Shown in pieces: positions 32-22,009 of a stretch of 64,000 bases of DNA (positions are counted from its first letter, which is position 1; every line of letters starts with the position of its first letter). The translations under genes were made by a program, and so were the position numbers. Below the pieces are notes generated by a model, which saw only the letters and a program-made list of their open reading frames with translations, ran no database searches and was not told the DNA's origin. The stretch is from Xanthomonas codiaei (GTDB taxonomy: Bacteria; Pseudomonadota; Gammaproteobacteria; Xanthomonadales; Xanthomonadaceae), in NCBI RefSeq assembly GCF_002939785.1, contig NZ_MDEC01000025.1:1-64000 (forward strand), written 5' to 3'.

Positions 32-81
32 CGGTGTCTCCTTCGGGGAAAGTAACACCTGAGCAGGAAATCAGTGGGTCA
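1..81 (-). mobile_element. Possible terminal part of an IS3-family insertion sequence
   Basis: Read on the minus strand, the stretch starting at position 81 begins TGACCCACTGATTTCCTGCT and leads after 50 bases to the OrfA-like start codon at 31. IS3-family elements typically begin with TG and have inverted repeats of 20-30 bp followed by a short leader to orfA. The other end lies outside the window, so neither the inverted repeat partner nor a target duplication can be tested here. Confidence 0.35.
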
Positions 82-127
82 TTACAGCTTATGCCGCCAA
101 AATCCTTAAAAATCATCAACAGATACT

Positions 128-427: not shown

Positions 428-478
428 AAGACAAACTCCGGATTTGTACTCGTTATGCTAAAAGCCTGATGAAGTGCT

Positions 479-997: not shown

Positions 998-1023
998 ATT
1001 AAACTACCGGTTTATGACATTTA

Positions 1024-2199: not shown

Positions 2200-2252
2200 T
2201 ACAACACCTCAATCAACGATTCGGGCAACGACGAACATCTAACCACCGCGGT

Positions 2253-3026: not shown

Positions 3027-3093
3027 GGAATTTCTCCTATCATTCATGGTTGCAACAGCAGTGACGACAGCAAAGTTCAAAATCAGTTGCCAA

Positions 3094-5526
3094 CTAGGCA
3101 ACAACCTTTCCTTTACCAGAACCCTTTCTATTCCGATAAAACGCAGGAAGCCATTCTTCCGGCGGCACATCATTTGCGGAAACGTGCAAACGTGCAGCTG
3201 CATCGTTGACTACCGAGTGCATGATTTCGATGTTATCTGTTGACGCCGAAATTACCGCCAATGCGTCGTCCATCCCCCGCAGATTGAGCTGACAGACGCT
3301 GGACGCATGTCCTTGTTTGACCAAGAAGCAACGTGAACGCTCGTCCAGCCCGATCACAACCTGATACTCCGCCTCGCTTAGCTTAAGACCATTGATGTAA
3401 TCATCGCGGTCCGCATTTGGATTAGGCAGGAGGATCAACGTCGCAGTTTGCTCGATCAATGCAGCCGAAATATCGCTTTTTAGCGCATCTTCCGGACTTT
3501 GCGTGGCGAAGATGCCCAAGCCGTTTTGCTTTCGAATGGTCTTCTGTTTGTTTTTTGCGAATTCTTTCAATCCGCCACCACCATCAAGGATCTTCCAGAA
3601 CTCATCCATCACATAGATCAATGGCCGACCATCGATCAACGTCTCCAGCTTATGGAGCAGATAATTGATAACCGGAACACGAACCTCAGGATTATCGATA
3701 ACGTCGGTATAATCGAAACCGATAATATTGGCACGCGACAAATCGATCGTATCGACGGGATTGTCGAATACCCATCCCAGAGAATTACCCGAGGTCCAGC
3801 GACGCATGCGTGCAAATAAACCATCATCGCCCATGTTAGGCAAACTTTTTTGGAAATTTGTCATGCTGCGTAGGTGCATGGGCGTATCAAGCATGTTTTC
3901 AACGGCTCGAAAGATATCCTCTTCTTCACGAGCGCTGTATTCGCGCTTGCCAGCCAGCACCTTGATCAAGTCAGCGAGAAACTGCACATTGCTTTCGTTT
4001 CTTTCACACTGAAAAGGATTGAAACCTGTTGGCATGCCGTTATCGAGTGCAAGATAATTTCCACCACACGCGCGCACAAAGATTTCAGCACCACGGTCTT
4101 TGTCAAAGAAAAAAATGGTCGGCGATGGTTCATACTTTTGAACCTGACTCAGCAGAAAGTTGATGAGTGCAGTCTTGCCGGTACCAGACTTACCAATCAC
4201 CATCGTGTTCGCAATTGCCTTCTCGCCCAGCGAATTCTCGCTCGGGTGAGTTGCGTGAAAATTGAAAAAGTAAGGCTGACCGTTTGTGGTTTGGAGCGTG
4301 GTAACACAATCGCCCCAGGGGTTATTGTTTCGTTTACCAGTCGCAAAGTTATGAAGAGGCGAAAGCCCAAGAAAGTTTAACGAGCTGACATTGGCAATAC
4401 GCGTGCGATATCGCCAGTTACCTGGAAGCTGTGAATAGAATGATGATGCGACAGCAAGATCTTCTTTGGCGGAAACAAACCCTCCATTCGAAAGCTCTGC
4501 GCGCGTAGCAGCGATGTTTTGCGTTAAAGTCTCTTGACTATCAGCATAAACCGCCATTGTGAAATGATATTCTCCAAGCACAAAGTTACCGGATGCGATT
4601 TGATCCATCGCCATGTCCAGCTCTATGATCTGGCTGACTGCCTTGTCCCCGGATGAAATCATCATTCCTTTCGTGCGATCTAGTACACGCAAAGCATCCT
4701 GACGTCCGATCGGGCTAAAAGAGTGCGTAATCACATACTCAAAGTCCAGATACTTCAAACCATTCAAAATCCCCGGGTATGTACCCTCAGCATATTCCTT
4801 GACGTTCAGCAGAGCCCCGAAATGATTCGCTCCATTTGGAGTATTAATTACGTAGTCGCCGCTTTTAGCCGAGAACATGTGCCGGCTGACCGGCAAATAT
4901 TCGTTCACCGGAGCAGTAAGAACCGGAACTGGCTCATCAATCCTATTGATGAGATAAGCAAAAAATTCGAGAGTTTCGGAAAAAACGACGCCGTTCTTTG
5001 CTTCATAGATACCGAGTCGATAAGGTGCATAGTCACGAATGACGGCTTCGACGTTGCCTGCTAGCTCCATCAACTTTGCAACTGCCTGCTCTTGGGCAGC
5101 TTGCAACCGCTTGATGTCGGTCGTTTTCTCTGCAAACCTTTTGCCGCTGACCATGGGGCGATACAACATTGTCAAATACAGCTCATTTTGCATAAGCCGC
5201 TGTGAAGACAACATTTCGAAATATTTTTCGGATAGTTTCTGATTGAACAGATTGCTGTAGCTGCCTTTTTGAGTCAGCTTTCGTCTACGGCGGACGTCAT
5301 GCACCCAAAAAGCTACATTTACAAAGTCGGGAGCACGAAGGGTTTGTAACAACCTGTTAAATGTATTATGCCGATGTTCAAGCTCCCATTCGTCACGACC
5401 GACGAACGGCAGACCTTCCAAGTGCCAGGTAAGCAAGTAGTCGCCACCAGTTGTCTTGACCACATTGGTCGAGACATGGGACGAAAAAGGAATGAATTCG
5501 CTTATGGAAGTATCCGGGTTAAACAT
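3094..5526 (-). CDS. virB4: VirB4 ATPase of the T4SS
   Basis: 810 residues, the usual size of VirB4/CagE ATPases. The N-terminal half is the VirB4 N-domain that contacts the inner-membrane complex. The C-terminal RecA-like motor has Walker A GKSGTGKT at about residues 445-452 and Walker B LIYVMDEF at about 636-643, plus a conserved ATQSPEDAL segment. VirB4 powers pilus assembly and substrate transfer from the cytoplasmic face. A 13-bp perfect hairpin lies in the 93-bp gap after virB3, just before this gene. The ribosome binding site is weak (AGGGG about 11 bases away). Confidence 0.95.
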   Translation of the reverse strand: MFNPDTSISEFIPFSSHVSTNVVKTTGGDYLLTWHLEGLPFVGRDEWELEHRHNTFNRLLQTLRAPDFVNVAFWVHDVRRRRKLTQKGSYSNLFNQKLSEKYFEMLSSQRLMQNELYLTMLYRPMVSGKRFAEKTTDIKRLQAAQEQAVAKLMELAGNVEAVIRDYAPYRLGIYEAKNGVVFSETLEFFAYLINRIDEPVPVLTAPVNEYLPVSRHMFSAKSGDYVINTPNGANHFGALLNVKEYAEGTYPGILNGLKYLDFEYVITHSFSPIGRQDALRVLDRTKGMMISSGDKAVSQIIELDMAMDQIASGNFVLGEYHFTMAVYADSQETLTQNIAATRAELSNGGFVSAKEDLAVASSFYSQLPGNWRYRTRIANVSSLNFLGLSPLHNFATGKRNNNPWGDCVTTLQTTNGQPYFFNFHATHPSENSLGEKAIANTMVIGKSGTGKTALINFLLSQVQKYEPSPTIFFFDKDRGAEIFVRACGGNYLALDNGMPTGFNPFQCERNESNVQFLADLIKVLAGKREYSAREEEDIFRAVENMLDTPMHLRSMTNFQKSLPNMGDDGLFARMRRWTSGNSLGWVFDNPVDTIDLSRANIIGFDYTDVIDNPEVRVPVINYLLHKLETLIDGRPLIYVMDEFWKILDGGGGLKEFAKNKQKTIRKQNGLGIFATQSPEDALKSDISAALIEQTATLILLPNPNADRDDYINGLKLSEAEYQVVIGLDERSRCFLVKQGHASSVCQLNLRGMDDALAVISASTDNIEIMHSVVNDAAARLHVSANDVPPEEWLPAFYRNRKGSGKGKVVA

Positions 5527-5566
5527 CAGCTTGATCTAGCCCCTGTGGCTAATACTGTGAACGCAG

Positions 5567-5596
5567 GGAAGTCGGCGTCTGACGACGCCGACTTCC
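5567..5596 (-). repeat. Perfect hairpin between virB3 and virB4
   Basis: Arms GGAAGTCGGCGTC (5567-5579) and its exact complement (5584-5596) flank a four-base loop. In the direction of transcription it follows the virB3 stop and precedes the virB4 start by about 40 bases. There is no T-run behind it, so it is not a standard intrinsic terminator. It may be an mRNA processing or stability element that sets the ratio of virB3 and virB4. Confidence 0.7.
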
Positions 5597-5619
5597 ACTC
5601 CATCAGAAGCCCAACAATT

Positions 5620-5922
5620 TCACGGTGGTGGGTTCTTCCGATAACTATTGGGTGTAAAAACCCACTTCCCTGAATTTGAACGAACGTTCCTGACTTTAAG
5701 CTTGAACTGCCAACGCAAACCTAACAAGCGGAAAATCATTTCATCACGACGCGCCATCTGACGCATTATGAAAATAATGACAGGAATGAGGAAAAGATAT
5801 AGCAAATTCGTATACATAGAGAATACTAACGTCCCGCCCGCACCGATGAAGAACGGAACATATGGCACGCCCAAGAACATGGCAGGCCTCGTGCAACCGC
5901 GGAAGACGACGTTCTTCTTCAT
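5620..5922 (-). CDS. virB3: VirB3 inner-membrane protein of the T4SS
   Basis: 100 residues, typical for VirB3. The family signature is FRGCTRPAMFLGVPYVP near the N-terminus, followed by two adjacent hydrophobic spans (about residues 20-60) and a basic tail. VirB3 assembles with VirB4 in the inner-membrane complex. It starts one base after the virB2 stop, so translation is probably coupled. Confidence 0.92.
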   Translation of the reverse strand: MKKNVVFRGCTRPAMFLGVPYVPFFIGAGGTLVFSMYTNLLYLFLIPVIIFIMRQMARRDEMIFRLLGLRWQFKLKVRNVRSNSGKWVFTPNSYRKNPPP

Positions 5923-5923
5923 A

Positions 5924-6316
5924 TTAAACGGTCAGGAACGGCACACTGTGAGTAATAAACGCGTTTACAGCTCCGCAGGAGCCGCCCGCGCCGGTGCCCA
6001 GTAGCATACGGGCAATCTGACCTGCCGCTCCGATCAAAACGCCGCCGATCAGAATTGGGGCCACGTCGCCAATCCGCTTGTGCGCGAACGCGATTTGGTA
6101 GCCGGCGAAGATAACTGCGATTGTTACCACCGCAATAGAAGCGATGTTAAGCAATCCAGTGATGCTTGTGAAAAACTCACATGTCTTGGTGTCAGTACCA
6201 CCGAAATTTTGCGCGAAAGCTGAAGACGCGGAGAGGGCTGCAACAAATATTGCAGACTTCACAACAGTCTTCGCAGTGCGCTCAGTTTCCAGTGACATAA
6301 ATTTACCATGCTTCAT
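5924..6316 (-). CDS. virB2: VirB2 major pilin of the T4SS
   Basis: 130 residues from the ATG at 6316, which is preceded by AAGGAG at eight bases; a longer open frame upstream has no such site. The long signal peptide ends near SSAFA before QNFGG. The mature pilin has two hydrophobic helices (LLNIASIAVVTIAVIFAGYQ and the IGGVLIGAAGQIARMLL region) joined by the basic loop AHKRIGD, the standard VirB2 fold. Two Cys in the mature part are outside the helices and could form a disulfide. It lies between virB1 and virB3. Confidence 0.93.
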   Translation of the reverse strand: MKHGKFMSLETERTAKTVVKSAIFVAALSASSAFAQNFGGTDTKTCEFFTSITGLLNIASIAVVTIAVIFAGYQIAFAHKRIGDVAPILIGGVLIGAAGQIARMLLGTGAGGSCGAVNAFITHSVPFLTV

Positions 6317-6378
6317 TGTGACTCTCCTTGTTAAGGCCCAACATGACGATGCACCTACCGGATTGGCCAAACCGGAGG

Positions 6379-7431
6379 CTAGAAAACAAATGCAGCGTCT
6401 CCTGCCTGCACAAGTGGCTGTTGCAGAGAGGGACTTGCCGCAACGTGTGAGGTGGCTGCTTGCGTGGGAGGGGCACCTAGTATCACCGGTGTCCGTGAAC
6501 TCATCAAGACAGCGACCTCCCCATCGCCCGAAAGGCCCGGAGAGGCTCGGGATTCAGCTGACGATCTCGAAGGGGTAGCAGCCCTGCCACCAGACAACTG
6601 CGCGGAAACTTCCGGTCTGCGCATCCCAGAACTGGCTGAACCAGTTGGGTTCTCTTTGTTTGACCGAGAAGTTCCGACCTCTGAGGTAACACTTGTCTGA
6701 GGAAACACCTGCGCGGGATCCTGCTGCGACGCTGAGTTAACACTTTGAGTTCGTTCTTCCAATACACGCGACAACACTCGATCAGGCAAGGACTGTGTGA
6801 ATTCCTTCGTTGACCTGGCCGTCTGCCTGATATGCATCGGACTTTGGCCCACTAAAGGAATAGCGGTAGCTCCCGCCTGTGCCGTGGTTCGTGCCATGGA
6901 ATCAAACACCTTTTGCACATATCCGTGCCGAAAGCCAGTCACGAAGTTCCCTGAGTAGTAGCAACTCAGTGCTTTGCCCCAATCCCTTCCAGAGCGCTGA
7001 TAGCATTCTGAGAGAATGGCTGATCCAGCTTTCAGGTTCGGACACTGCTGGAACGCCTGCTCATAAGACAGCAAGCCATATTTTGAAAGGTTGTAACGAT
7101 TCACTTGTGCAAGCCCAAGAGAAAAGTTGTAGCCTTTTTCCTGAAGCATCTGAACCGTGGATAGAGCTTCGCCCAAGTTTTTCGGCTGTCGCACCAGTCG
7201 CCCGCCCACGACGCCGATGGCGTAAGGATTATAAGAAGACTCTACTTGGACAACATGCTGCATCACAGAAAGCGGCGCTGACATTTCTCCGCAGGCCATC
7301 ATTTCAATTCCGGGCAGCATGAGACTCCCCCCTGGCGCTTCATTTTGGAAGCCAGCTACCGACGCGCACGTGGCAAGACTTGGAGCAAACCAACCCAGAG
7401 ATAAAAAAATCGCTGCGCCTTTTTTTATCAT
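6379..7431 (-). CDS. virB1: VirB1 lytic transglycosylase of the T4SS
   Basis: 350 residues. The N-terminal signal peptide is followed by a soluble lytic transglycosylase (SLT) domain: catalytic Glu in VVQVESSYNPYAIG (about residue 64), FSLGLAQVNRYN (about 103-114), and the PNLKAGSAILSECY helix. It opens peptidoglycan for apparatus assembly. The C-terminal half (about residue 190 on) is long, Ser/Pro/Ala/Gln-rich and unstructured, reminiscent of the processed VirB1 tail in Agrobacterium. Its start overlaps the virB11 stop by 4 bp (ATGA). Confidence 0.93.
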   Translation of the reverse strand: MIKKGAAIFLSLGWFAPSLATCASVAGFQNEAPGGSLMLPGIEMMACGEMSAPLSVMQHVVQVESSYNPYAIGVVGGRLVRQPKNLGEALSTVQMLQEKGYNFSLGLAQVNRYNLSKYGLLSYEQAFQQCPNLKAGSAILSECYQRSGRDWGKALSCYYSGNFVTGFRHGYVQKVFDSMARTTAQAGATAIPLVGQSPMHIRQTARSTKEFTQSLPDRVLSRVLEERTQSVNSASQQDPAQVFPQTSVTSEVGTSRSNKENPTGSASSGMRRPEVSAQLSGGRAATPSRSSAESRASPGLSGDGEVAVLMSSRTPVILGAPPTQAATSHVAASPSLQQPLVQAGDAAFVF

Positions 7432-8465
7432 GATTGAAATTTCCTCTCAGGATTAAAGTCAATACCCGTGATATATCGACGGCCTTCGTGGGCTTTAATG
7501 TGCACAACCACATCGATTGTCATCATCAACAACCGTTTTATCACGTTGAATTCCAGTCCAGAGCCCTCCACGGAAGCCTTTACCATCAAGGCCAGTTGGT
7601 CCCAAGTCTGCTCTGGGCTACCGGCATGACAGCTGGTAATCGACCCGGGATGACCGGAGGCGCAGTTTCTTATAAAATAAAACGCTTCATCGCCGCGCAA
7701 TTCTGCCAAAATTATTCTATCCGGCTTCATACGCAAGCAAGCTTCCATACAACTTTTGGCTGTCACGTTGCTTGCGCTCTGCCCGCCTTTCGAATACAAA
7801 AGATGCACCACATTGGGCTGCGAAATGAAGAGCTCACGTGCATCCTCAATCGTGACCAAACGCTCGCTTCCGGGAATGTGGTTGACAAGCGATTTCATGA
7901 AGGTCGTCTTACCGCTACCGGTCGCACCAGAAACGACAATATTCTTCTTATAAAGCACTGCCTGCTTGAAGAATTCGGCATATTGTCGGCATTGACGGAG
8001 CATTAAGAGCTCTTTATCGTGCTCACTTACTTCACCGCTATGCTCCAAGATTTGATCAAAGAACCCATCTTCCTGGTATTGGGACAGGGTCTTTGTGTGC
8101 TTGGAAGGCAAACGAATAGTGATGGATACCTTTCCGGCATCACAGGCAGGAGGGATCACAAACTGAGCACGTTGACCGGTTGGGAAGGTTAGTGAAACAA
8201 CTGGATCAGCATCAGTAATCCGCTGACCAGTATTACTTTCATTAACCACTGCTGTACAAAACTGACGGGCGCGCTCAAATGTCAGACCGGGCACTTCTAC
8301 ACGCTCCCATCCCCCGCGCGTCTCTAGGTAAACCTCTCCAGGACGATTTATGCAAATTTCTGTCACTTCGGACGACAGCATGTAATCCTGAATACCAAGT
8401 ACGCTGTACTGGTATTCAAGAAACTCGCTAGATGCCTTTGAGACGGGCGAAACTTCTGCGTCCAC
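7428..8465 (-). CDS. virB11: VirB11 hexameric traffic ATPase of the T4SS
   Basis: 345 residues, GTG start at 8465. It belongs to the type II/IV secretion ATPase family: Walker A GATGSGKTT at about residues 180-188, the Asp box (TIEDARELFI), Walker B-like RIILAELRGDEAFYF near 250 and the His box GHPGSITSCHA near 271-281. VirB11 sits at the inner-membrane base and switches between pilus assembly and substrate translocation with VirB4 and VirD4. It is 11 bp downstream of virB10 and overlaps virB1 by 4 bp. Confidence 0.96.
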   Translation of the reverse strand: MDAEVSPVSKASSEFLEYQYSVLGIQDYMLSSEVTEICINRPGEVYLETRGGWERVEVPGLTFERARQFCTAVVNESNTGQRITDADPVVSLTFPTGQRAQFVIPPACDAGKVSITIRLPSKHTKTLSQYQEDGFFDQILEHSGEVSEHDKELLMLRQCRQYAEFFKQAVLYKKNIVVSGATGSGKTTFMKSLVNHIPGSERLVTIEDARELFISQPNVVHLLYSKGGQSASNVTAKSCMEACLRMKPDRIILAELRGDEAFYFIRNCASGHPGSITSCHAGSPEQTWDQLALMVKASVEGSGLEFNVIKRLLMMTIDVVVHIKAHEGRRYITGIDFNPERKFQS

Positions 8466-8476
8466 GTGCGCTCTCG

Positions 8477-9730
8477 TTACCTTCTTGGCAGTACATTCGT
8501 AAAATCAACATCTTTCGCAACATACACATTAACCAATGATCCCTGATTAATGGTGACAGTTGCTGGCCGTCTCATACTTTCCGTAGCGGCGTCATTAGCA
8601 ATACGCTCCATCGTTCTCGCTGTAGCACTTTCATAAGGCGACTGAACTTCTACGCCTGTTTGCGAAACCGTCGTCTGCTCAGGACCGTACTCGGCAGCTG
8701 CGTACTTGAAAGCGTCTGCCAACAGACTAATCATCAATGCCGACGACAGACGCTGCCCCCAATGCGCGTCGTACTGCCCAGGGTGTCCAGCTCCGCCCAA
8801 TCCATCGGTGCCAGGACTTGACATAGTCACGTCTATGCCGTTCGGGGTGGTAATACGATCCCAAATAACAGACACGCGTCGCCCTGTCGGACCGCCGCTG
8901 TAGCTTCCGTAAACTTTTGATCCCTTAGGCAGCAGTAGAGTACGACCATTTATCGAATAAACCGGCTCTGTAATGAGACAAGACGTAAAGCCTGGGATAT
9001 CGGTAATCACCCGAGTCTCCAAAATGCAGCGCAGATACGTTCCCCGTACAAGCAGTGCGTCTGGGTGTCGAATGAATTGCGCATTCGTCACTTTCTGCCT
9101 GTCTGCGTCAGCACTGCCTTCCGAATTTGCAGATCCTGCTTCACCTGCGGGATTAAGTCCGGCAAGGATAGAGTTGGAGTACTCCTCGGCACTCATTGGT
9201 GCACCGCTAGCAGATTCCGGGGCACCTCCAGCTGACGCCATACGTCGCTCAGCTAAAGTGGGACCGGCAGGCCTGCTGCTTGGTGAATAAACCGGCTGCG
9301 GGTAATCGGGGGCTTGCGCCGGAGGCAACGGCGGTGCAGCAAGTGAAATCGGCGGTACATCTTGCTGAACATCGGTCGACGGAGGCGTAGTTGCCATTTT
9401 TGGCAGGCTTGGCGCAGTTACGGCGGCTGTAGGCTCTTTTTTCGCTTCTGCGGAGTTACGATTGGTCGCGCTTTTGTAAAGGAAAAAAGCGAGCACGAGC
9501 AGAACCAAGACAATTGCCCCGAGAAAAAACAACGCTTTCCTGTTAAGGCGCTGATCTTCCACTGAACGAAGCTCAGGGGCTGAGGCATCCAAATTTGGAA
9601 GTGGTTGCGCTTGAGTACGCGCATAGTAGGGGTTATTTGGATCCTGGCCGCTGCCCTGAGCCTGCTCGCGATCCAGATCGCCGCTATCCAAGCGGCCCTC
9701 ATTGTTCCCAGGAGGATTATTTTGGCTCAT
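8477..9730 (-). CDS. virB10: VirB10 envelope-spanning core protein of the T4SS
   Basis: 417 residues. It has a cytoplasmic N-terminus, one membrane span at about residues 66-86, a Pro-rich periplasmic linker (about 100-160) and a C-terminal TrbI/VirB10 beta-barrel domain with QFIRHPDALLVRGTYLRCIL and the hydrophobic antenna region near SSALMISLLADAFKYAA. With VirB7 and VirB9 it builds the outer-membrane core complex and senses ATPase energy from the inner membrane. It overlaps virB9 by 4 bp (ATGA). Confidence 0.96.
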   Translation of the reverse strand: MSQNNPPGNNEGRLDSGDLDREQAQGSGQDPNNPYYARTQAQPLPNLDASAPELRSVEDQRLNRKALFFLGAIVLVLLVLAFFLYKSATNRNSAEAKKEPTAAVTAPSLPKMATTPPSTDVQQDVPPISLAAPPLPPAQAPDYPQPVYSPSSRPAGPTLAERRMASAGGAPESASGAPMSAEEYSNSILAGLNPAGEAGSANSEGSADADRQKVTNAQFIRHPDALLVRGTYLRCILETRVITDIPGFTSCLITEPVYSINGRTLLLPKGSKVYGSYSGGPTGRRVSVIWDRITTPNGIDVTMSSPGTDGLGGAGHPGQYDAHWGQRLSSALMISLLADAFKYAAAEYGPEQTTVSQTGVEVQSPYESATARTMERIANDAATESMRRPATVTINQGSLVNVYVAKDVDFTNVLPRR

Positions 9731-10497
9731 TTTCTCACATTCCTCCGCAGACCAACGACATTACTTCCATGTCTGATGACTAGATAGGGATATGTACCGT
9801 GCACGACGAGCACATTTCCCTCGACTGTTGTATTGACTACAAAATCTTCGCCATGCTCTTTTTCGCGACCGAACACCGCCGGGAAATTTCCGGTTTGGAA
9901 TTTATTTGAATCTGTAAGCTTCAGGTATGTAAAACGACCATCATCATATGCGCTTACAGGCACAAGCCAGCCCAACTTGCTCCTAGTGGCGTAAGAATAG
10001 TCAAAGTAATATTGCCTATCTTTGGACAACTCGGTACTCAGAAGCGGCTTCGCTTCTTCCTCAGTCGTTTCCTTCGCGACTGAGAATTGGGAGTCACTCG
10101 GGTAATTAAAGACAACTTTGTACTGGACTCCTGCGCGACGCGCTTGTTCAAGTTCGCGCCAATCAGTTGCAACCACTTTTAGCTCGAAGATATATGAGTG
10201 CGTTTCAGTTCTCACCATCATGTTAGTATCAACATCGATGTTTTTTGGCTTTAAGTAAAACACATTGTCTCGACGGGTCAGTTCCCACCCGCTACTGAAA
10301 CCTGTGCTGTAGTCCAAAATTTTCTCGTTGGGATTTAGCTCGATTTGAGTTGTAATTCCCAAGCCAGCCCGGATCGGGTAGATTTGATCAGCTTTGTAGT
10401 CGTAGTAATCTACAGCTTGAGCGCCAACGCTTCCTGCCGATCCAACTCCTGTGACTACAGCAAGGAGCCACATTATTAATTTCTGTCTATACTTCAT
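9727..10497 (-). CDS. virB9: VirB9 outer-membrane core complex protein of the T4SS
   Basis: 256 residues. The signal peptide is cleaved near SVGAQA. The N-terminal domain (YPIRAGLGITTQIELNPNE) and C-terminal beta-sandwich (YSYATRSKLGWLVPVSAYDDGRFTYL) are characteristic of CagX/VirB9. The C-terminal domain is the part known in this family to bind the VirB7 N-terminus. It overlaps virB8 and virB10 by 4 bp on each side, consistent with fixed stoichiometry. Confidence 0.95.
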   Translation of the reverse strand: MKYRQKLIMWLLAVVTGVGSAGSVGAQAVDYYDYKADQIYPIRAGLGITTQIELNPNEKILDYSTGFSSGWELTRRDNVFYLKPKNIDVDTNMMVRTETHSYIFELKVVATDWRELEQARRAGVQYKVVFNYPSDSQFSVAKETTEEEAKPLLSTELSKDRQYYFDYSYATRSKLGWLVPVSAYDDGRFTYLKLTDSNKFQTGNFPAVFGREKEHGEDFVVNTTVEGNVLVVHGTYPYLVIRHGSNVVGLRRNVRK

Positions 10498-11414
10498 TGA
10501 CCTCTTGCTCCGTCAGTTCCAATCGAAATCCCTTCGGCCGACCCTGCTACATCTGGCTTGGTCGCTGCTGGCACTGCAACGCCAATCGCCGGGGCGGCTA
10601 GGTCTGAATTCGGAATCGCAACAACCTGAGGCTGTGCTACACCGGCAGCTACACTGGCACCAGCAGCGGGCGCGCCCACGTCTGGCGGAGCCTTATCGTA
10701 ATCATTATCGACGCGGTACTCAGTCACTTGGAATCCCAAGGGATTTTGCAACCGGTCTTGCTCATCCAACTTAAGGTTGTCGTTGTAGTCAAACGCCAAG
10801 GTAACCAGCTTGTTGTCAATGAAAGTCGAGATACCAGTGGTTTTTTCGTACAGATTGCGCTGTATTCTGACAGCAGCCCCTCTGAATCCGCCTCCAGCTC
10901 GCTGACCCAATGGGGTTATACTCAAAATTTTAACCCGAATCGACTTCCCCTTACCGTACTTCAGGAAGGGATTATCAGGGTTATTTTCCATATAGAGCTG
11001 TTTGTGTCCAGCACCCACTTGCGGCGTGGACATAATGAAGACGAGATTCCAATCCCGCAGTGTCATTATCTCTGAGTCATAAGACTCACGCGCCGTCACG
11101 TACTGAGCAACATTACTTCGATTTATTGCTTCGCTAGAGGTAATTTGCTGGTTGTAAAAATCCTCCTGCAACCGAGCGACGGTCGCAGTTCCCGTCGAGG
11201 CATCCGCCATCACCAGATAAGGCACCTTTTCCTTAAGCGGCAGCATGTAGTAGTAACCGCCTGCTAGCATCACGGAAACTGCCAACGAGACGGTAGCAAC
11301 CATCCAAGCACGCTTCTGGCTACGCTGCGCGAGATCTGCAATTGTCAGCTCATAGTTAACCGCTTTGGCGACTACTTGATCGACCTGGCGACTTGGTTCT
11401 TTCTTACGGAACAT
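10494..11414 (-). CDS. virB8: VirB8 periplasmic scaffold of the T4SS
   Basis: 306 residues. A cytosolic N-terminus is followed by a single span at about residues 36-58 and a periplasmic NTF2-like VirB8 domain (PYLVMADASTGTATVARLQ, YVTARESYDSEIMTLRDWNLV, VRIQRNLYEKTTGISTFIDN). The tail of about 60 residues is Ala/Pro/Val-rich and looks disordered, longer than in the Agrobacterium protein. VirB8 nucleates assembly and contacts VirB9 and VirB10. It lies 69 bp after virB7 and overlaps virB9. Confidence 0.94.
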   Translation of the reverse strand: MFRKKEPSRQVDQVVAKAVNYELTIADLAQRSQKRAWMVATVSLAVSVMLAGGYYYMLPLKEKVPYLVMADASTGTATVARLQEDFYNQQITSSEAINRSNVAQYVTARESYDSEIMTLRDWNLVFIMSTPQVGAGHKQLYMENNPDNPFLKYGKGKSIRVKILSITPLGQRAGGGFRGAAVRIQRNLYEKTTGISTFIDNKLVTLAFDYNDNLKLDEQDRLQNPLGFQVTEYRVDNDYDKAPPDVGAPAAGASVAAGVAQPQVVAIPNSDLAAPAIGVAVPAATKPDVAGSAEGISIGTDGARGQ

Positions 11415-11483
11415 AAGTAATCCGCTTCCACCTAATTTACAGAAAAACTGCCTGATTGGTTAGCACCGCGGCAACGACAGTAG

Positions 11484-11894
11484 TTAACCAGCCGCCTTGG
11501 AAACAGGCTGAACTACAATCTGATTTCCAACAACCGAAACGAGCACACCCTGAGTCGCATAAACCGCGCTAAGCTCTTCTACAGCCTGCTTGATACTCGT
11601 CGTATCAACTTTTGCAACGGCAGAATAAAGGGTGTAGTCAGATGTTATGTTGTAAGCGAGGGTCATATTGGAGTCTTTAGCCCACCGCTCCAGCATTGTC
11701 TTCAGTGTCCCGTCCATGGGAGTTGCCTGATAGACGTAAGAAGAATGCAGCGGGAGTTCCATCGGAGTTTCCGCGAAACGATTTACTGGCTTCCATCGCC
11801 CGCCAAAGTCCGCGGCAGGTTTCGTCGCGCAGGACGACAGCGCTGCCGTAGTCACCAGAAGTACTGAAACCTTCAAAAGATGGACCTGTCTCAC
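11484..11894 (-). CDS. virB7: VirB7 lipoprotein with C-terminal N0-like domain
   Basis: 136 residues, GTG start at 11894 with GGAG upstream. The lipobox LSSC places the lipidated Cys at residue 22. A short linker follows with RWKPVNRF (about 33-40), the type of segment that binds the VirB9 C-terminal domain. Residues from about 53 to 130 match the N0 domain of secretins (GTLKTMLERWAKDSNMTLAYNI, then IKQAVEELSAVYATQGVLVSVVGNQIVVQ). Classical VirB7 is only about 40-55 residues; the N0 extension is known from the Xanthomonas citri T4SS. This protein anchors the core complex and probably adds an outer ring. Confidence 0.93.
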   Translation of the reverse strand: MRQVHLLKVSVLLVTTAALSSCATKPAADFGGRWKPVNRFAETPMELPLHSSYVYQATPMDGTLKTMLERWAKDSNMTLAYNITSDYTLYSAVAKVDTTSIKQAVEELSAVYATQGVLVSVVGNQIVVQPVSKAAG

Positions 11895-12237
11895 GCCCTA
11901 ATCTCCATAACAAACAAGTTATTCTGATTCCACGCCGGCGAAAACGCGCATGCAATCCATCGTAAGCCAATTCTTAAAACCTGCTCGCGTCGAGATATTT
12001 CAGAAACGGAAAATCGTTCGCATTTGAAGCGAACGTGGCGGAAAGTTTCTGAATTCGTTTTGTCAAGCATAAAGCCCCTACACTCCATGTACCCCGAGTC
12101 CATAAGAGCAGCCATACTTAGGTATCGCCAGACTGCCAGCTCAAGTGATCAATTTGCCTAGCACCCGACAAGGTGTCAAGTCTGAAGTGATAAAAGTCAC
12201 TAATTTATGAAAAATTATCATAAAATTGTGATAAAAT
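11895..12237. promoter_or_regulatory. virD4-virB7 intergenic region (leader/promoter region of the virB operon)
   Basis: A 343-bp gap inside an otherwise tightly packed locus. It holds no convincing gene; a short frame at 11891-12115 has no ribosome binding site and no family resemblance. The part next to virD4 (12186-12246) carries three AT-rich palindromes. Beside them, on the minus strand, is a perfect TTGACA and a weak -10. The remaining 250 bases form a long potential leader ahead of virB7. Confidence 0.6.
12151..12179 (-). promoter_or_regulatory. Predicted sigma70-type promoter for virB7-virB6
   Basis: On the minus strand TTGACA (12174-12179) is followed after 17 bases by CAAATT (12151-12156). 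The -35 box matches the consensus perfectly and the -10 box is weak, as in activator-dependent promoters. It lies directly downstream of the palindrome cluster. This is pattern matching only. Confidence 0.45.
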
Positions 12238-12246
12238 TCACAATTT
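12186..12246. promoter_or_regulatory. Three evenly spaced palindromes, two of CRP/Clp type
   Basis: Site 1 is AGTGA-N6-TCACT (12186-12201). Site 2 is TTTATGA-N7-TCATAAA (12204-12224). Site 3 is AAATTGTGA-N6-TCACAATTT (12223-12246). Sites 1 and 3 fit the CRP half-site pattern GTGA-N6-TCAC, and site 3 is the full TGTGA-N6-TCACA consensus that Clp, the Xanthomonas CRP homologue, also recognises. Centres are at 12193.5, 12214 and 12234.5, that is 20.5 bp or about two helical turns apart. The virD4 stop codon lies within site 3. Confidence 0.6.
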
Positions 12247-13914
12247 CACACGAAGCGTGGGCACGTCAGCTTTTGTCATTAGACGAGACGTAAAGTGCTT
12301 GTCTTCGTAGTACTTGATTTTTTCGCATTTGACAGGGTGAGGAATGCCTTCGTAGAGGAAGACCTCAGCGTCGCTTCCCATTGCCTTCAGCTCCTGGGGC
12401 AACATCAGCGCCCGACGCTCCTCTGAGACGCTGTGCGTTATCTCACGCCCTCTAGTGACATTCTTCTTCTTGATGGTGGTGTAGCCCAGCATCTCCGAAT
12501 AGTCGTTAGCGTCTTGCTGCTCGCGTGGCGCGTACAGAATCTGCAGGGCATGGTTGGTAATGATGGTGCGCGACAAGTCTTTGCCATAAGTGGCGTCCAG
12601 CTGCGCCATGCTTTGGATGATGGGCAGAAGACGGATGTTGTAGCCAGCCATGTAGGCTACCGCAGTCGCGATGATGTCCACCTTGCCAATCGAGGTGAAC
12701 TCGTCCATCAGCAATAGGCACTGGTACTTTAGCTCAGGGTTGGACTTCGGCAACTCACGGGTATTGAGGTTGATGATCTGACTGAAAAGCAGATTGATGA
12801 TCAGACGGCTTTCGGCCAGCTTGTTTGGCTGGATGCCGATATAAATGGTCATCTTTTTTTTGCGAAGATCGGTCAGCAGGAAATCGTCAGCACTGGTTGC
12901 CGCATCCAGGACAGGATTGATCCATGCATTGAGCGGCTCTTTCAGCGTTCCCATGATGGAGGCGAAGGTCTCATCCGCCTGTGACAGCATGTTGGCAAAG
13001 GCCGACTTGGCATTGCTGCTGAGGAAGCGCCGCTCCGATAGGGATTTCAGGTATTTCTTGAGATCGGTGCCGTCACCTGACGACAGGCGATAGATGCCGC
13101 CAAGCGTCGGGGCCCCTGCCCCGCCAGGGAAACCAAGCGTCAGCTCTTCATCCCAGTTCTCGAACAGATAGAGGGAAAAGGCCATGAACGCATTACGCGC
13201 CTGGCTGACCCAGAATTTCTGATCGTCCGAGCCATCCGGATAGAGCATCGCCGCGATGCTCATAAGATCCGAGACCCGAAATGCCGGATCGCTTGACACG
13301 TAAGTCAGCGGGTTCCAGCGATGCGTCCGCCGATCTTCGGCGAACGGATTGAACAGGAAAACCTCATGCCCCTGGCTAGCGCGCCACCCGCTGGTCAGGT
13401 CGAAGTTCTCCTGCTTGATATCGAGCACGACAACCGATTCCTGATATTCGAGCAGGTTCGGAATGACCACTCCAACGCCTTTGCCGGACCGCGTTGGCGC
13501 AGCGAGAATCACAAACTGCTGACCACTCAGCCGCACCAGCTTGCCATTGAATTTGCCGACGACAATGCCATTAGGGCTCGCCTTGAACAGACCATGCTTG
13601 GAAAGATCAGCCGCTCCTGCAAAACGCGCATCGCCATGCAGAGCCTTCTGCTTGGGTTTGACCAGGATCACCATGCCGATGGCCCAAATGATCCCGGGCA
13701 GGCCGAATCCGAACATACCAGCCAGCTTGATCTTGGTGACATAAGGCGCCACCTGCGGCAGGCCTAGCGCGCTGACGTAACGATAATACGTATCCCACGC
13801 ATACAGCTTGGCATCTAGCCGTAGCAGCAGAAGCGTGAGATAGCCCGACAGGCAATATCCAACGATCAACGTTGCCACTGTGGCGATCGCAGCGATCTTG
13901 AGCTTGGAGGACAC
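12238..13914 (-). CDS. virD4: VirD4 coupling ATPase of the T4SS
   Basis: 558 residues, GTG start at 13914. Two N-terminal membrane spans (about residues 8-32 and 62-86) precede the cytoplasmic motor with Walker A APTRSGKGVG (about 139-148) and Walker B CLLLMDEFTSIG (about 399-410). Between them is an inserted helical region (about 255-345) corresponding to the all-alpha domain. In Xanthomonas, VirD4 recruits effectors carrying the C-terminal XVIPCD signal. Base composition is closer to the host average than that of the virB genes. It is 34 bp downstream of the 80-codon ORF. Confidence 0.96.
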   Translation of the reverse strand: MSSKLKIAAIATVATLIVGYCLSGYLTLLLLRLDAKLYAWDTYYRYVSALGLPQVAPYVTKIKLAGMFGFGLPGIIWAIGMVILVKPKQKALHGDARFAGAADLSKHGLFKASPNGIVVGKFNGKLVRLSGQQFVILAAPTRSGKGVGVVIPNLLEYQESVVVLDIKQENFDLTSGWRASQGHEVFLFNPFAEDRRTHRWNPLTYVSSDPAFRVSDLMSIAAMLYPDGSDDQKFWVSQARNAFMAFSLYLFENWDEELTLGFPGGAGAPTLGGIYRLSSGDGTDLKKYLKSLSERRFLSSNAKSAFANMLSQADETFASIMGTLKEPLNAWINPVLDAATSADDFLLTDLRKKKMTIYIGIQPNKLAESRLIINLLFSQIINLNTRELPKSNPELKYQCLLLMDEFTSIGKVDIIATAVAYMAGYNIRLLPIIQSMAQLDATYGKDLSRTIITNHALQILYAPREQQDANDYSEMLGYTTIKKKNVTRGREITHSVSEERRALMLPQELKAMGSDAEVFLYEGIPHPVKCEKIKYYEDKHFTSRLMTKADVPTLRVKL

Positions 13915-13948
13915 GCGCCCTACTCCTTGGCTAATCTTCTATCGACGT

Positions 13949-14191
13949 CTAGCGACGCAGGGTTGGCTGGTGGTCGAGGGGGCCAAGCTTACGCCCTCCG
14001 CTCTCGCTTTCGACCAGTGAGTCGATCCACATCTTCGCTTGGTCGAGGGACAAATCCGGAGTCAACCGTGCACCCGCATCCGTCACGACGGCATACGCCA
14101 CAACGTTGTCGGCGGAATACACCTCTTCGCGAGTAATGGCCACCACGCGATACTTCCCCCTGCTCAGCACGGTGTGCTGGAACTCGTCCAT
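13949..14191 (-). CDS. Small conserved-looking protein upstream of virD4, function unknown
   Basis: 80 residues, ATG at 14191 with AAGGAAG at a good distance. There is no signal peptide or membrane span. Segments such as RGKYRVVAITREEVYSADNV and LDQAKMWIDSLVESE look like a small alpha/beta cytoplasmic domain. I do not recognise the family. It precedes virD4 by 34 bp in the same direction, so it is probably the first gene of the virD4 transcript and may be a regulator or adaptor of the T4SS. Coding status is supported by the ribosome binding site and the absence of a better frame. Confidence 0.6.
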   Translation of the reverse strand: MDEFQHTVLSRGKYRVVAITREEVYSADNVVAYAVVTDAGARLTPDLSLDQAKMWIDSLVESESGGRKLGPLDHQPTLRR

Positions 14192-18105: not shown

Positions 18106-21100
18106 TCACTGAATCTGGCGCCAGGATTGGCGGCCGCAAGGATAAGGAACATACATGGGCGTGGCGCCTGCCACGTTGACGACCATCCAGCAACCTGAAC
18201 CAGCCGGAACAGCTGGGGCAGCTGAGCCATCCTTTGGATTGACCTTGGGTTCAAGCCTGGGCACGACCGATACCCCCACATCCTTGACCGGTGCATTTCC
18301 GCCCGTGTTAAGTGAGATACCGGCAGAACCGCTGGCAAGCGTGGAACCACTGACCCCGCCCATTCGAACACCAGACAATGCACCTATGCCCGTGCGCGGA
18401 TTCAGCCCGAACAGCCAATTCACGCCATCGGGGACGCAGCCGCTACTCGCAGCGAGCGGCGCATATGTAGGCATGAAGAGAATTCCCGAGACAAGCTCCG
18501 GATAACCCACGAATCGCTCGCCGGCGGGCAAATCCACATACCACCCAAGCGCCGTTGTCGGAGCAGTACCTGCTTGCAAGCTGCGCGTCGCGCCGCCCGT
18601 AGCAGTCGTGACCGAATAGGGGGTCAGATTCGCCCTGCTTAGGGTAGTGGCGATCACGCCATCCACCTGATCCGTAAAGCCGTACAGGCTTTGTATGTGT
18701 TGCGCGGAACTTGGCAGGCTGTCGTCGTTGAACGAAAAGCTACCAGTACCAAACAACACGAGGACCCCGCCATTTTCGCCAGAAGCGGCCTGTAGTCCAC
18801 CTGTAATAGGCTGCCGATAGGTCCGCCCACCTTCGGTGTACGTCCCCGTAGTGAAAGCCGGAACGGTCACCAAAGCTGCCGTCGACGTGAGATCGAACTT
18901 CCAGATCGCACCACGAAGATCGGCGGCATAAACCGTGTCTGCATAGCCATCCCGCGTACGAGCCGGCACACCGGACGGGTCGACTGTTAAATTGTCCACG
19001 CGATCCAGGACAATGATATTGCCCAGCCCGTTCCGGCCACTGATCGCGTTCCCCGGCTCCGTCGCCTCGATCATACGGACGACCGGAGTCGAAGACGTTC
19101 CGATATCCACTACGAACAAGACAGCTTTGCCGCTGGCGCTGTCATAGCCGTTACCGAAGATCGCTTTCCAGCTCACCGAGCCATTTGCAGCACGTACCGG
19201 GACAATGACCGGCTTGCCGAGCACATGCCCGATATTGGAACGCACCGCGGCATCACCGCTGAGATCATTGATTTCCCAAAGTCGACTCCCGCTACCGAAC
19301 GCACCCGGATTAGTGACATCCAGCGCGAACGCACCGCGACCACCGGCTCCTGTCGTGCCAACCAGTGTCGTTTTCCAACTGTTGCTGTAGTAGGCATCTC
19401 CCACCGCCAACGGACCATCGACGAAATAACGATGATCGAACGAGGGGATAGTTCCCTTGACTGCCTGGTACGGCAGCAATAAATTGCCCATATGCCCATA
19501 GGATGTTGCGGGAATATAAGCAAAGCGTTCGCGGCCGCCAGTACCTGTCACCGTGCCACCGCTATTAATCCCCCCATCGAAAGCATGTAACATTCCGTCA
19601 TTTGCACCGGCATATACCATGTATCCCCGGTTGGCACGTTTGCTTTCCAAGTAAGCGGTGTAGGTCGTACCCAACGTTCCACTTAGAGCTCTGTATCCAT
19701 AATCATCGGTAGGAGCACTGATCAACGGCGCAGAGTTGATGATATCACCGAGCACGGTGCTGCGATCACGAAACCTGCCTTTCTGCTGAACTTCCCCAGT
19801 CCGATCACCTAATAGATAACTAGCCGCCGTCGCAGCGGTCGCCCCGAGATCGGTCAGGTTCTGTGCTGAACAGAGCGTTTGGCCGCGATAAAGCGTCTGA
19901 GAGAGACCGCAGAGACCGTCGAGACTGATAGCCGTTCCTTCGAACTTTCGTACATTACTGCCATCGTTGAAAAAAACATTGCGGGCATTCGGCGCAGGAA
20001 TCTGCCCGGAAGCCTCCCACAGCTGAGTGAAGCGAGCTTCCCGTGTAGCGGGATCGACCGAGGCCTGGCTTGCTTTAAGTTTACTTGACCAATCGGTTCC
20101 ATTGTTCCTTATCTGATACTCAGGCGCGACCGACAAGGAACCCGTGCCGATTCGTGCCCCCGTCAGCGCCAATGTTCCGGAAGGCGAGCTGGGCGAACTA
20201 GCCGCGGACAGAACACGCTGCATTGCGGCCGTTACTTCTGCCGGACTTTTTGCATTGATGAATTGACCTCGACCATTTACGGTGGCATGCCAAAGCTCAT
20301 CAATTACCCTACCGTCGTCACCATCGTTTGGATCACCATTTGCATTCCAGTCAGGCGCGTTCGTATAAGGGTCGGCGGTAGCGGACTGATTGACTTCATA
20401 AATATTCCCTTGTGCGCCAAGCGTGATTGCATAAAAATTCATATGCAAATCTTTCTGGCAGTCCAGCCGCTTCCAGTCTGGCGATTCTTTTGAGAGTGTT
20501 GCGCACTTGTCATCCACTGGCACCAAACCCGCTTGAAACCCCTGCCCGGATACCAACGGCGTCGACGCTCCCGAATAATATGACGCCGCAATGTCGGCTA
20601 TAGTGTTTGAGTAATCATCGGCAAAAGGCACGGCAGGAAAATCTATGGTACCCACCGAATCCGCATTATCATACCCCGCAACCGCATCTGTACTATTCGT
20701 ATAACCGTCGGTAAACAACATGCCGCCGTTTTTTTGACATGCACGCAATACCGGAGCACCATCCCCGACGCGTAAAAACTGCCTACCCAAGTAATCCACA
20801 GCCGTACGATTCGGCGTTCCTCCAGAGGGTTTCAGCTTATATACGCTATCATACAGCGAGGCCATTTCGGAATCGACACCCACGTCATACATCGTGACAT
20901 TGGTGCGATTATTAATAGTAAAATATCCCACGCGCATTTTTTCGACTGTCGATAGAGCACGCGTCTCCGATCCAATGACAGCAAGAATACGATTACGATG
21001 ATATTGGAACCAGTTTGCAAAGTTCGTACTTGCTGCGTTATAAGCATTTACATTGTTGTCATAATTACGCAAAGTAATTTGATAACGCCTCATATTGCAA

Positions 21101-21999
21101 CCGGGACCGCAGGCGTTTTGAATTACAGGCCGATTAGTATCATTGGCAAGATAATTCGCGGGAGCTGGAGCAGCTTCGGGCAAGTAGAAGGTAGCAGGCA
21201 CATAGCCGATTTGCACTTGACAGTTCGCTGCAACAGTGACGGTCGAAGCCAATGTAGCCCAATTGCCGTTACTACTTGGCAACCCATTATTATTCGGAAA
21301 CCCTTGATTATTGAATGTATTGCACGATCGAGCAGAGGATCGGTAACGGGTGCCTGCCGGTATCCTCATCCCAGTAAGGAACTGAAAGAATTCGTCATTA
21401 GCCTCACGATATGCAAGGTCGTATTTAGTGTTGTAACCAGTGAAAAAGTCGCTGCCGTAAATAGAGGAATCACGGGGATCGACCCGGGCCTCATTAAAAT
21501 TGGCATTTGCCCAAAGAGTTGGGCCGCCCCCTGATTTAGGGGGAAGTGCCCAAGGACTGTAGACAACATCTGGATTATAATAGCTCGCATTGTAGGTTGG
21601 CGATCGCGCAAACCCGAAGATGTCAAGCGGAGGAATCGCATCTCCCGGAGTATAAGCAGCGTTGTAGCCACTGTGCGGATACAAGTAGAGATAGCAATCC
21701 GCCGAGTTATTTGCGCACCCCTGACTGGCATCAAAAAAAGTTCCTGCCGCACTGAAGAAACTGGTGCCATTCCAACGTAAACGACCGTCCCCCCCTTTAA
21801 AGATTCGCTCAAACGTCATCGAATTCGAGTCATCCACAGCCATAATAAAAGCGGGAGGAATCGAGTTCACATTATTGAGCGGGGCCTGCGCCAGGGTACC
21901 TTGACCTTGCGCAGCAATCAGGCTGTAGACGAAGTAGCCGCCAGCTGCGGCAAGCACGATCGCGGAAACGACAGCGGTTCGGAAAATGCGACGGGACAT
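18106..21999 (-). CDS. pilY1: PilY1, type IV pilus tip adhesin and assembly factor
   Basis: 1297 residues from the ATG at 21999; a longer frame into pilX is not needed. An N-terminal membrane/signal segment (RTAVVSAIVLAAAGGYFVYSL) is followed by an N-terminal region with a von Willebrand A-like MIDAS, MAVDDSNSM (DxSxS). The C-terminal half is the PilC/PilY1 beta-propeller: YAGANDGMLHAFDGGI, WKTTLVGTTGAGGRGAFALD, then DGYADTVYAADLRGAIWKFD. PilY1 sits at the pilus tip with the minor pilins, mediates adhesion and counteracts retraction. The N-terminal half of the gene is visibly AT-richer than the propeller-coding half. Confidence 0.95.
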   Translation of the reverse strand: MSRRIFRTAVVSAIVLAAAGGYFVYSLIAAQGQGTLAQAPLNNVNSIPPAFIMAVDDSNSMTFERIFKGGDGRLRWNGTSFFSAAGTFFDASQGCANNSADCYLYLYPHSGYNAAYTPGDAIPPLDIFGFARSPTYNASYYNPDVVYSPWALPPKSGGGPTLWANANFNEARVDPRDSSIYGSDFFTGYNTKYDLAYREANDEFFQFLTGMRIPAGTRYRSSARSCNTFNNQGFPNNNGLPSSNGNWATLASTVTVAANCQVQIGYVPATFYLPEAAPAPANYLANDTNRPVIQNACGPGCNMRRYQITLRNYDNNVNAYNAASTNFANWFQYHRNRILAVIGSETRALSTVEKMRVGYFTINNRTNVTMYDVGVDSEMASLYDSVYKLKPSGGTPNRTAVDYLGRQFLRVGDGAPVLRACQKNGGMLFTDGYTNSTDAVAGYDNADSVGTIDFPAVPFADDYSNTIADIAASYYSGASTPLVSGQGFQAGLVPVDDKCATLSKESPDWKRLDCQKDLHMNFYAITLGAQGNIYEVNQSATADPYTNAPDWNANGDPNDGDDGRVIDELWHATVNGRGQFINAKSPAEVTAAMQRVLSAASSPSSPSGTLALTGARIGTGSLSVAPEYQIRNNGTDWSSKLKASQASVDPATREARFTQLWEASGQIPAPNARNVFFNDGSNVRKFEGTAISLDGLCGLSQTLYRGQTLCSAQNLTDLGATAATAASYLLGDRTGEVQQKGRFRDRSTVLGDIINSAPLISAPTDDYGYRALSGTLGTTYTAYLESKRANRGYMVYAGANDGMLHAFDGGINSGGTVTGTGGRERFAYIPATSYGHMGNLLLPYQAVKGTIPSFDHRYFVDGPLAVGDAYYSNSWKTTLVGTTGAGGRGAFALDVTNPGAFGSGSRLWEINDLSGDAAVRSNIGHVLGKPVIVPVRAANGSVSWKAIFGNGYDSASGKAVLFVVDIGTSSTPVVRMIEATEPGNAISGRNGLGNIIVLDRVDNLTVDPSGVPARTRDGYADTVYAADLRGAIWKFDLTSTAALVTVPAFTTGTYTEGGRTYRQPITGGLQAASGENGGVLVLFGTGSFSFNDDSLPSSAQHIQSLYGFTDQVDGVIATTLSRANLTPYSVTTATGGATRSLQAGTAPTTALGWYVDLPAGERFVGYPELVSGILFMPTYAPLAASSGCVPDGVNWLFGLNPRTGIGALSGVRMGGVSGSTLASGSAGISLNTGGNAPVKDVGVSVVPRLEPKVNPKDGSAAPAVPAGSGCWMVVNVAGATPMYVPYPCGRQSWRQIQ

Positions 22000-22009
22000 G
22001 CCGGCAGCC

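What the first reader, a model, noticed from the sequence alone, without database searches (positions are those of the whole stretch)
12186..12246. Three palindromes at exact two-turn spacing between virD4 and virB7, two of CRP/Clp type
Two GTGA-N6-TCAC palindromes and a central ATGA-N7-TCAT palindrome have centres at 12193.5, 12214 and 12234.5, each 20.5 bp apart, so all three lie on one face of the helix. The outermost has nine-base arms and full TGTGA-N6-TCACA. They lie just upstream of a minus-strand TTGACA, separating virD4 from virB7-virB6. This suggests cooperative control of the virB part, independent of virD4, by Clp or another CRP/FNR-family protein. I know of no description of this array.
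Basis: partly seen in the sequence, partly recalled or inferred. Interest (0 to 1): 0.7.

Follow-up and report, generated by a model that had tools for sequence, protein, structure and literature searches.

The report
Clp-type operator array before virB7
Three evenly spaced mirror-image DNA motifs sit just upstream of the start of a bacteria-killing secretion machine's genes in a Xanthomonas; the outer one looks like a binding site for the global regulator Clp that relatives share, while the full three-motif set is a rarer variant seen in four species.

Summary
Palindromes centred at 12193.5, 12214 and 12234.5 precede the virB7 promoter of a Xanthomonas X-T4SS; 0 of 20000 shuffles gave such an equally spaced triple. 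The predicted start (about 12143) agrees with the X. citri virB7 start, mapped 249 nt upstream of virB7. The outer motif, one of three perfect TGTGA-N6-TCACA in the genome, is the broadly kept element: 25 of 26 genus loci have at least 8/10 in the 75 bp before the -35, against 4.7% of shuffles. It lies 36.5-38.5 bp from the -35 in 19 of 20 single-site loci and 55.5 bp in the array loci, near class I CRP positions. Clp is encoded. The array aligns without gaps in four species, arms conserved, spacers not; the exact central motif occurs nowhere else in 35 genus genomes. The four are one clade for VirB7+VirB8, not in the best VirD4 tree. Best reading: a Clp-type class I promoter, expanded in one virB allele into a three-protein array whose central protein is unknown. 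Binding is untested.

The parts
12223..12246 (-). Outer palindrome, perfect Clp/CRP-type site TGTGA-N6-TCACA (core 12227-12242, centre 12234.5), overlapping the virD4 stop codon; about -90.5 to -92.5
   Evidence: at least 8/10 in 25 of 26 genus loci; right arm outside the ORF conserved
12204..12224 (.). Central palindrome TTTATGA-N7-TCATAAA, centre 12214 (about -70 to -72); arms 14/14 invariant in the four array species; protein unknown
12187..12200 (-). Inner GTGA-N6-TCAC site, centre 12193.5 (about -49.5 to -51.5); 8/8 core in the window and G032, 7/8 in X. pisi and X. sp. 3793
12174..12179 (-). -35 hexamer TTGACA of the virB7 promoter
   Evidence: TTGAC present at the corresponding place in 26 of 26 genus loci used
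12151..12156 (-). Putative -10 hexamer CAAATT, 17-bp spacer; CAGATT, CAAAGT and similar in relatives
   Evidence: promoters set side by side
12142..12146 (-). Predicted transcription start, by comparison with X. citri (249 nt upstream of the virB7 start)
11895..12141 (-). virB7 5' untranslated region (about 250 nt); holds GGA motifs, as does the CsrA-bound X. citri leader
   Evidence: GGA at 5 places; CsrA binding is from PMC7286519 for X. citri, not shown here
11484..11894 (-). virB7 (136 aa, TcpQ-like domain just below cut-off), first gene of the virB operon
12238..13914 (-). virD4 coupling ATPase, upstream gene; its stop codon lies inside the outer site

Best explanation
[quoted passage not shown] A Clp dimer is expected to bind the outer TGTGA-N6-TCACA site and recruit RNA polymerase as a class I activator. 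That outer Clp-type site is the broadly conserved element of this promoter in Xanthomonas and, in mostly weaker form, in Stenotrophomonas. In the virB allele carried here and in three other species, the stretch between it and the -35 has become two further palindromes in phase: a unique central one, probably for a different dimeric regulator, and an inner Clp-type one. Three side-by-side dimers on one DNA face could then act together. SHOWN: sequence, positions, conservation pattern, presence of Clp, association with the virB allele. INFERRED: Clp binding, activation rather than repression, gating by c-di-GMP (known for Clp itself), cooperativity, a separate central protein.
For: The mapped X. 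citri virB7 start and separate virD4 start (PMC7286519) put the window start at about 12143. The outer site scores at least 8/10 in 25 of 26 genus loci against 4.7% of shuffles, at a near-fixed distance from TTGAC: 36.5-38.5 bp in 19 of 20 single-site loci, 55.5 in 4 of 4 array loci, 54.5-55.5 in 6 of 6 other Xanthomonas loci (two of these six are also among the 26). In Stenotrophomonas the site keeps 52.5-54.5 bp in 20 of 22 loci although it lies up to some 50 bp beyond the virD4 stop codon, so virD4 coding does not explain it. Its non-coding right arm is conserved and its spacer is not. E. coli CRP activates strongly from -71.5 and -72.5 (alpha 105 and 83; 1.3 at -76.5; PMC6301791), and class I positions include -92.5 (PMC11894529). 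Clp is encoded and matches 3iwz over its whole length. Clp binds TGTGA-type sites, two in tandem at engXCA, one spanning -80 to -59 (PMC6430473). Arms of the array are invariant at 28 of 32 positions, spacers at 7 of 19. Window and array relatives are 72-75% identical over the array and 54-64% over the non-coding DNA after it.
Against: No binding or expression data. In L083, the locus whose leader best matches the published X. citri GGA pattern, the right arm is lost (7/10), and X. citri T4SS output was constant over the growth conditions tested, so strong Clp control is not evident there. S. maltophilia-type sites score only 7-8/10, and 28% of the Xanthomonas shuffles reach 7; where a Stenotrophomonas locus has two TTGAC, one search took the one that fits best. 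L029 has 9/10 matches but not at that distance, L059 has no TTGAC. The two distance classes differ by 18 bp, not 21, so one is 1-2 bp off the ideal face. A dimer at about -50 is not a standard activating position. At engXCA the site near -70 is the low-affinity one. Clp can also repress (xagA, PMC3528676). The four array loci share one ancestor, so their kept spacing is one event with later constraint, not four.
Confidence: 0.62

Rival explanations
1. Only the outer site is a working Clp operator; the central and inner palindromes are inherited AT-rich sequence acting at most as an UP-like element or intrinsic bend for RNA polymerase.
For: Local GC falls to 22% (12180-12239). The 20 single-site loci manage with one site. 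The inner site has lost one arm base in 2 of 4 array species.
Against: The central arms are 14/14 invariant and the array is more conserved than the leader and the promoter core; AT-richness alone would not keep palindromic arms while spacers drift. (The central spacer is itself 5/7 invariant.)
Confidence: 0.2
2. The central palindrome is the recognition site of a LysR-type regulator: ATGA-N7-TCAT has the 4-7-4, T-N11-A layout and lies near -70, where such regulators usually bind; the flanking Clp sites modulate it.
For: Layout and position; the LysR rule itself is recalled, from no call. The 7-bp spacer is wrong for Clp.
Against: T-N11-A is a weak motif and follows from any such palindrome. 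No candidate regulator was sought: of the locus and its neighbours only 8 proteins were scanned, none a regulator.
Confidence: 0.12
3. RNA-level element: the palindromes are hairpins at the 3' end of virD4 mRNA, for termination or stability.
For: In the 101-nt RNA all three palindromes fold as hairpins, z -3.8, 0 of 200 shuffles as stable.
Against: In 23 distinct outer-site sequences, 0 of 115 pair cells show compensatory two-sided change, 11 are one-sided G-U and 9 are broken. The stems are A-U rich with no terminator call there, no Rfam match, and in Stenotrophomonas the distance to the -35, not to the stop codon, is kept.
Confidence: 0.05
4. The outer site belongs to a Rex-type redox repressor (TTGTGAA-W4-TTCACAA), not Clp.
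For: The outer site differs from the Rex consensus quoted in the abstract of PMC2883068 (seen in the listing) by one base.
Against: The only PF06971 match in the genome is just below the family cut-off (25.8 against 27 bits; not examined further); relatives keep TGTGA and most of TCACA but not the Rex-specific inner bases.
Confidence: 0.02

Closest known systems
engXCA promoter of X. campestris with tandem Clp sites CBS I (-80 to -59) and CBS II (-53 to -32), the latter shared with HpaR1 (PMC6430473; outline and three sections read)
   Same: Xanthomonas promoter with two Clp sites upstream of or at the -35, one centred near -70, and a second regulator involved
   Different: engXCA sites are about 27 bp apart, one overlaps the -35, and the one near -70 is the weaker; here the two Clp-type sites are 41 bp apart with a separate palindrome exactly between, and the target is a secretion operon
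X. citri virB7 promoter and CsrA-bound leader (PMC7286519; passages, outline and Discussion read)
   Same: Same operon, promoter position and roughly 250-nt leader
   Different: No Clp or CRP control of virB in the passages seen (Clp occurs once, in a reference title); L083, the closest leader match, has one degenerate site and no array
E. coli class I CRP promoters (PMC6301791, PMC11894529; passages only)
   Same: CRP-type site at face-of-helix distances upstream of the -35
   Different: Here three palindromes, one not of CRP type; E. coli data are used only as a yardstick
deoP2-type CRP-CytR-CRP arrangement in E. coli (recalled, from no call)
   Same: Two CRP-type sites with another protein's site between them
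   Different: Spacing and motif differ; no CytR-like protein shown here

Membership tests
Clp (CRP-family) operator | TGTGA-N6-TCACA dyad | tested here: met
   Outer site 10/10; inner 8/10 with an 8/8 core. The central site fails
Clp (CRP-family) operator | Cognate Clp encoded in the same genome | tested here: met
   L116 ORF matches 3iwz over 230 of 230 residues, E 9.4e-147
Clp (CRP-family) operator | Protein binding, lost with c-di-GMP | not testable with these tools
   Needs gel shift or footprint
Class I CRP-type promoter | Site centred near -61.5, -71.5, -82.5 or -92.5 | tested here: inconclusive
   -71.5 to -72.5 for the single-site loci; -90.5 to -92.5 for the window, depending on the predicted start
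Class I CRP-type promoter | Conserved position in relatives | tested here: met
   Two tight distance classes in Xanthomonas and Stenotrophomonas; not found in 5 Luteimonas and Pseudoxanthomonas loci
Three-site array as a general xanthomonad feature | Three sites and 20.5-bp spacing kept across xanthomonad T4SS loci | tested here: not met
   4 of 26 genus loci; a DNA search of 395 family genomes found it in the same 4
LysR-type recognition site (central palindrome) | T-N11-A dyad | tested here: met
   ATGA-N7-TCAT; weak test, definition recalled
LysR-type recognition site (central palindrome) | Cognate regulator | not tested
   No candidate sought
Rex operator | Rex protein encoded | tested here: not met
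   Single PF06971 match, below cut-off, not examined further

The most novel reading that the evidence does not exclude
The array is a composite switch: two Clp dimers flank a dedicated, still unknown regulator at a site that occurs once per genome, so that assembly of a bacteria-killing secretion machine is gated jointly by c-di-GMP (through Clp) and by a second signal, and the switch spreads between species together with the virB operon allele.
Probability: 0.3. Interest if true: 0.72.

Novelty: new variant of a known kind. Interest (0 to 1): 0.5.

Why it matters
How the X-T4SS is switched on is poorly known: CsrA acts on the leader, PhoP loss raises expression by an unexplained route (PMC6562643, passages), and no activator of the virB promoter turned up in what I searched. 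A conserved Clp-type operator would link the killing machine to the DSF and c-di-GMP signalling that already controls exoenzymes and biofilm, and would make that link directly testable. The array also suggests a promoter region exchanged with the virB allele.

Tried and rejected
RNA hairpin or terminator reading: rejected, no compensatory change. Rex: rejected, though the one sub-threshold match was not examined. Conservation forced by virD4 coding: rejected, because the right arm is outside the ORF and the site keeps its distance to the promoter in Stenotrophomonas. Stenotrophomonas 'inner site' at 13.5 bp: on reading it is a different palindrome (TCAGAC-TT-GTCTGA), not counted. A gapped whole-array pattern in the own genome had one spacer wrong by a base (7 for 6), so its 7 hits mean nothing and were not used. 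Array search in 395 family genomes: the three hits outside the genus were short matches with no virD4, virB7 or virB8 on the roughly 3-kb loci fetched. One TTATGA-N7-TCATAA in another genus (G350, L170) was not followed. Of 7 CRP-domain matches in the genome I read the three over the cut-off (L115-L117); four weaker ones were not read. X. citri itself was not identified: no locus had 6 of 7 GGA motifs at exactly the published positions; L083 has 7 of 7 within 1 base.

Papers opened: 13. Sections read of PMC7286519 (Discussion) and PMC6430473, passages only of PMC10432156 and PMC6759196 (no Clp or CRP), PMC7577485, PMC10989847, PMC6637768, PMC13274925, PMC4657364, PMC6562643, PMC3528676, PMC6301791, PMC11894529. 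He 2007 (Clp regulon) and Alkhateeb 2016 (start sites) were not seen beyond citations. The seven literature searches listed 20 of 45, 20 of 68, 15 of 40, 13 of 13, 15 of 89, 15 of 108 and 8 of 8 papers.

Rows dropped: of 35 genus genomes, 26 gave a usable virD4-virB7 locus. Four had no VirD4 match at E 1e-100 (G009, G012, G024, G029); one is cut off inside virD4 (G008, L110); four had only 44-74% VirD4 relatives (G011, G013, G018, G019). In one search L105 was left out because its site sits 5 bp further on. Of the 80 loci (best of 227), 33 went into (6 other Xanthomonas, 22 Stenotrophomonas, 5 Luteimonas and Pseudoxanthomonas); named Xanthomonas loci repeating genus genomes were not counted twice, and loci without virB7 and virB8 shortly after virD4 (Lysobacter, Rhodanobacter, Dyella, Luteibacter, L064 and others) were not used. 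L048 and L049 have 8/10 and 9/10 matches, but 75.5 and 71.5 bp from TTGAC.

Full report
WHAT IS THERE. The window belongs to a Xanthomonas (VirD4 up to 92% identical to named Xanthomonas) and carries an X-T4SS locus read on the minus strand: virD4 (13914-12238), then virB7 (11894-11484), virB8, virB9 and onward. In the 343-bp gap, and running into the end of virD4, three palindromes are centred at 12193.5, 12214 and 12234.5. The outer one, AAATTGTGA-N6-TCACAATTT, holds a perfect TGTGA-N6-TCACA and the virD4 stop codon. The central one is TTTATGA-N7-TCATAAA, the inner one GTGA-N6-TCAC. Steps are 20.5 bp. A minus-strand TTGACA (12179-12174) follows, 17 bp before CAAATT.

CHANCE. 0 of 20000 dinucleotide shuffles of the local 91 bp gave an equally spaced triple of RTGA-type palindromes; 5 of 20000 gave at least two of them. 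No other place in the 64 kb has such a triple. TGTGA-N6-TCACA occurs 3 times in the 5.04-Mb genome and its reversed control 0 times; over the genus it occurs 0 to 5 times per genome, the control 0 to 2. Exact TTATGA-N7-TCATAA occurs once in the genome, here.

THE PROMOTER. In X. citri two starts were mapped, one 249 nt upstream of virB7 and one 303 nt upstream of virD4 (PMC7286519). L083 carries all 7 published GGA motifs of the X. citri leader within 1 base, with the start codon in the expected place. This puts its -35 first base at about -35 and its Clp-type position at -71.5 to -72.5. Carried over by the -35, the window start is about 12142-12146 (11894 + 249 = 12143).

CONSERVATION OF THE OUTER SITE. 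26 of 35 genus genomes gave a usable locus (drops under Tried and rejected). In the 75 bp upstream of the -35, 25 of 26 hold a match of at least 8/10 (6 of 26 perfect) against 4.7% of shuffles. The position is tight: 36.5-38.5 bp from TTGAC in 19 of 20 single-site loci, 55.5 in 4 of 4 array loci, 54.5-55.5 in 6 of 6 other Xanthomonas loci (two of them also among the 26), and 52.5-54.5 in 20 of 22 Stenotrophomonas loci, where scores are 7-9/10 and where, of two TTGAC, the better-fitting one was taken. L029 and L059 do not fit, and 5 of 5 Luteimonas and Pseudoxanthomonas loci have no such site at these distances. Of the dyad, the left arm is partly dictated by the virD4 stop codon; the right arm is non-coding and still conserved (two C positions 23 of 23, T 21, A 18, last A 11 of 23 distinct sequences), while no spacer position exceeds 14 of 23. 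The exception in the genus, L083, has lost the right arm.

THE ARRAY. They align without gaps from the outer site to the -10. Invariant positions: outer arms 7 of 10, spacer 0 of 6; central arms 14 of 14, spacer 5 of 7; inner arms 7 of 8, spacer 2 of 6. The array is 72-75% identical between window and relatives; the end of virD4 (58-61%), the promoter core (54-60%) and the leader (55-64%) are lower. A DNA search of 395 family genomes found it in these four only.

DESCENT. The four form one clade in a VirB7+VirB8 tree (support 99/97). In the best VirD4 tree they do not: the window joins two single-site species and the other three lie in another group; none of 200 bootstrap trees unites them, but the well-supported branches alone do not exclude one origin, and that bootstrap had not settled. 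So the array appears to follow the virB allele, and virD4 and virB have partly separate histories. L095 carries the same virB7-virB8 type with the common single-site promoter, so promoter and operon can also be parted.

HOW IT PROBABLY WORKS. Clp is encoded at G000:C19 and matches PDB 3iwz over its whole length. Of the two other CRP-domain matches over the cut-off, L115 looks FNR-like by its recognition helix and L117 is no CRP protein (my reading). c-di-GMP inhibits DNA binding by Clp (review passages, PMC6637768). At about -72 in the single-site relatives a CRP-type dimer would be in a strong activating position by E. coli standards; at about -91 in the window it is near the further class I position. 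The inner site at about -50 is not a standard activating position and may serve cooperative binding or repression. The central palindrome lies at about -70, where the single-site species place Clp, yet its sequence does not fit Clp. I take it as the site of another dimeric protein. Three dimers so closely set on one face suggest a joint complex. All binding and direction of control is inference; at xagA Clp represses.

WHAT IS KNOWN. Tandem Clp sites with a second regulator are known at engXCA. CsrA control of the X. citri virB leader is known, and PhoP loss raises T4SS gene expression. In the listed rows of seven searches of the open library and the papers opened I saw no report of Clp or CRP control of an X-T4SS promoter. 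Five of those lists were cut, most subscription papers are not held, and the 2007 Clp regulon paper was not available to me.

VERDICT. Observation confirmed; interpretation partly supported: a Clp-type operator is likely and broadly kept, the three-site array is a lineage-specific variant with an unknown central partner.

Noticed in passing
window 12015-12035 (-): A 7-bp hairpin followed by a T-rich tail in the virB7 leader, about 108-128 nt after the predicted start; the array-type relatives have a similar hairpin at the matching place. Possible attenuator or CsrA-related structure.
   Followed up: partly
L095 (G003) and L011: Locus of an X. arboricola strain (CFBP 7645) with the array-type virB7-virB8 allele but the common single-site promoter: an apparent promoter swap by recombination between promoter and virB7.
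   Followed up: partly
window 1-14000: The T4SS region is 48-54% G+C against 57-68% for most of the rest of the window (20001-22000 dips to 50.5%), as for horizontally acquired DNA.
   Followed up: no
L026, L031, L032, L036, L038, L040, L043, L046, L047, L053 (variants in L030, L034, L037): In 10 of 22 Stenotrophomonas loci a palindrome TCAGAC-TT-GTCTGA sits just upstream of the virB7 -35, where the window has its inner site: a possible different regulator.
   Followed up: no
G000:C6:155758-155773 and G000:C31:14516-14531: The other two perfect TGTGA-N6-TCACA sites of the genome: one beside genes of NlpC/P60-like proteins, one just upstream of a mnmG/gidA-like gene (names by my reading).
   Followed up: no
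L170 (G350:C44:40143-40161): The only exact TTATGA-N7-TCATAA outside this promoter in the 395 family genomes searched.
   Followed up: no
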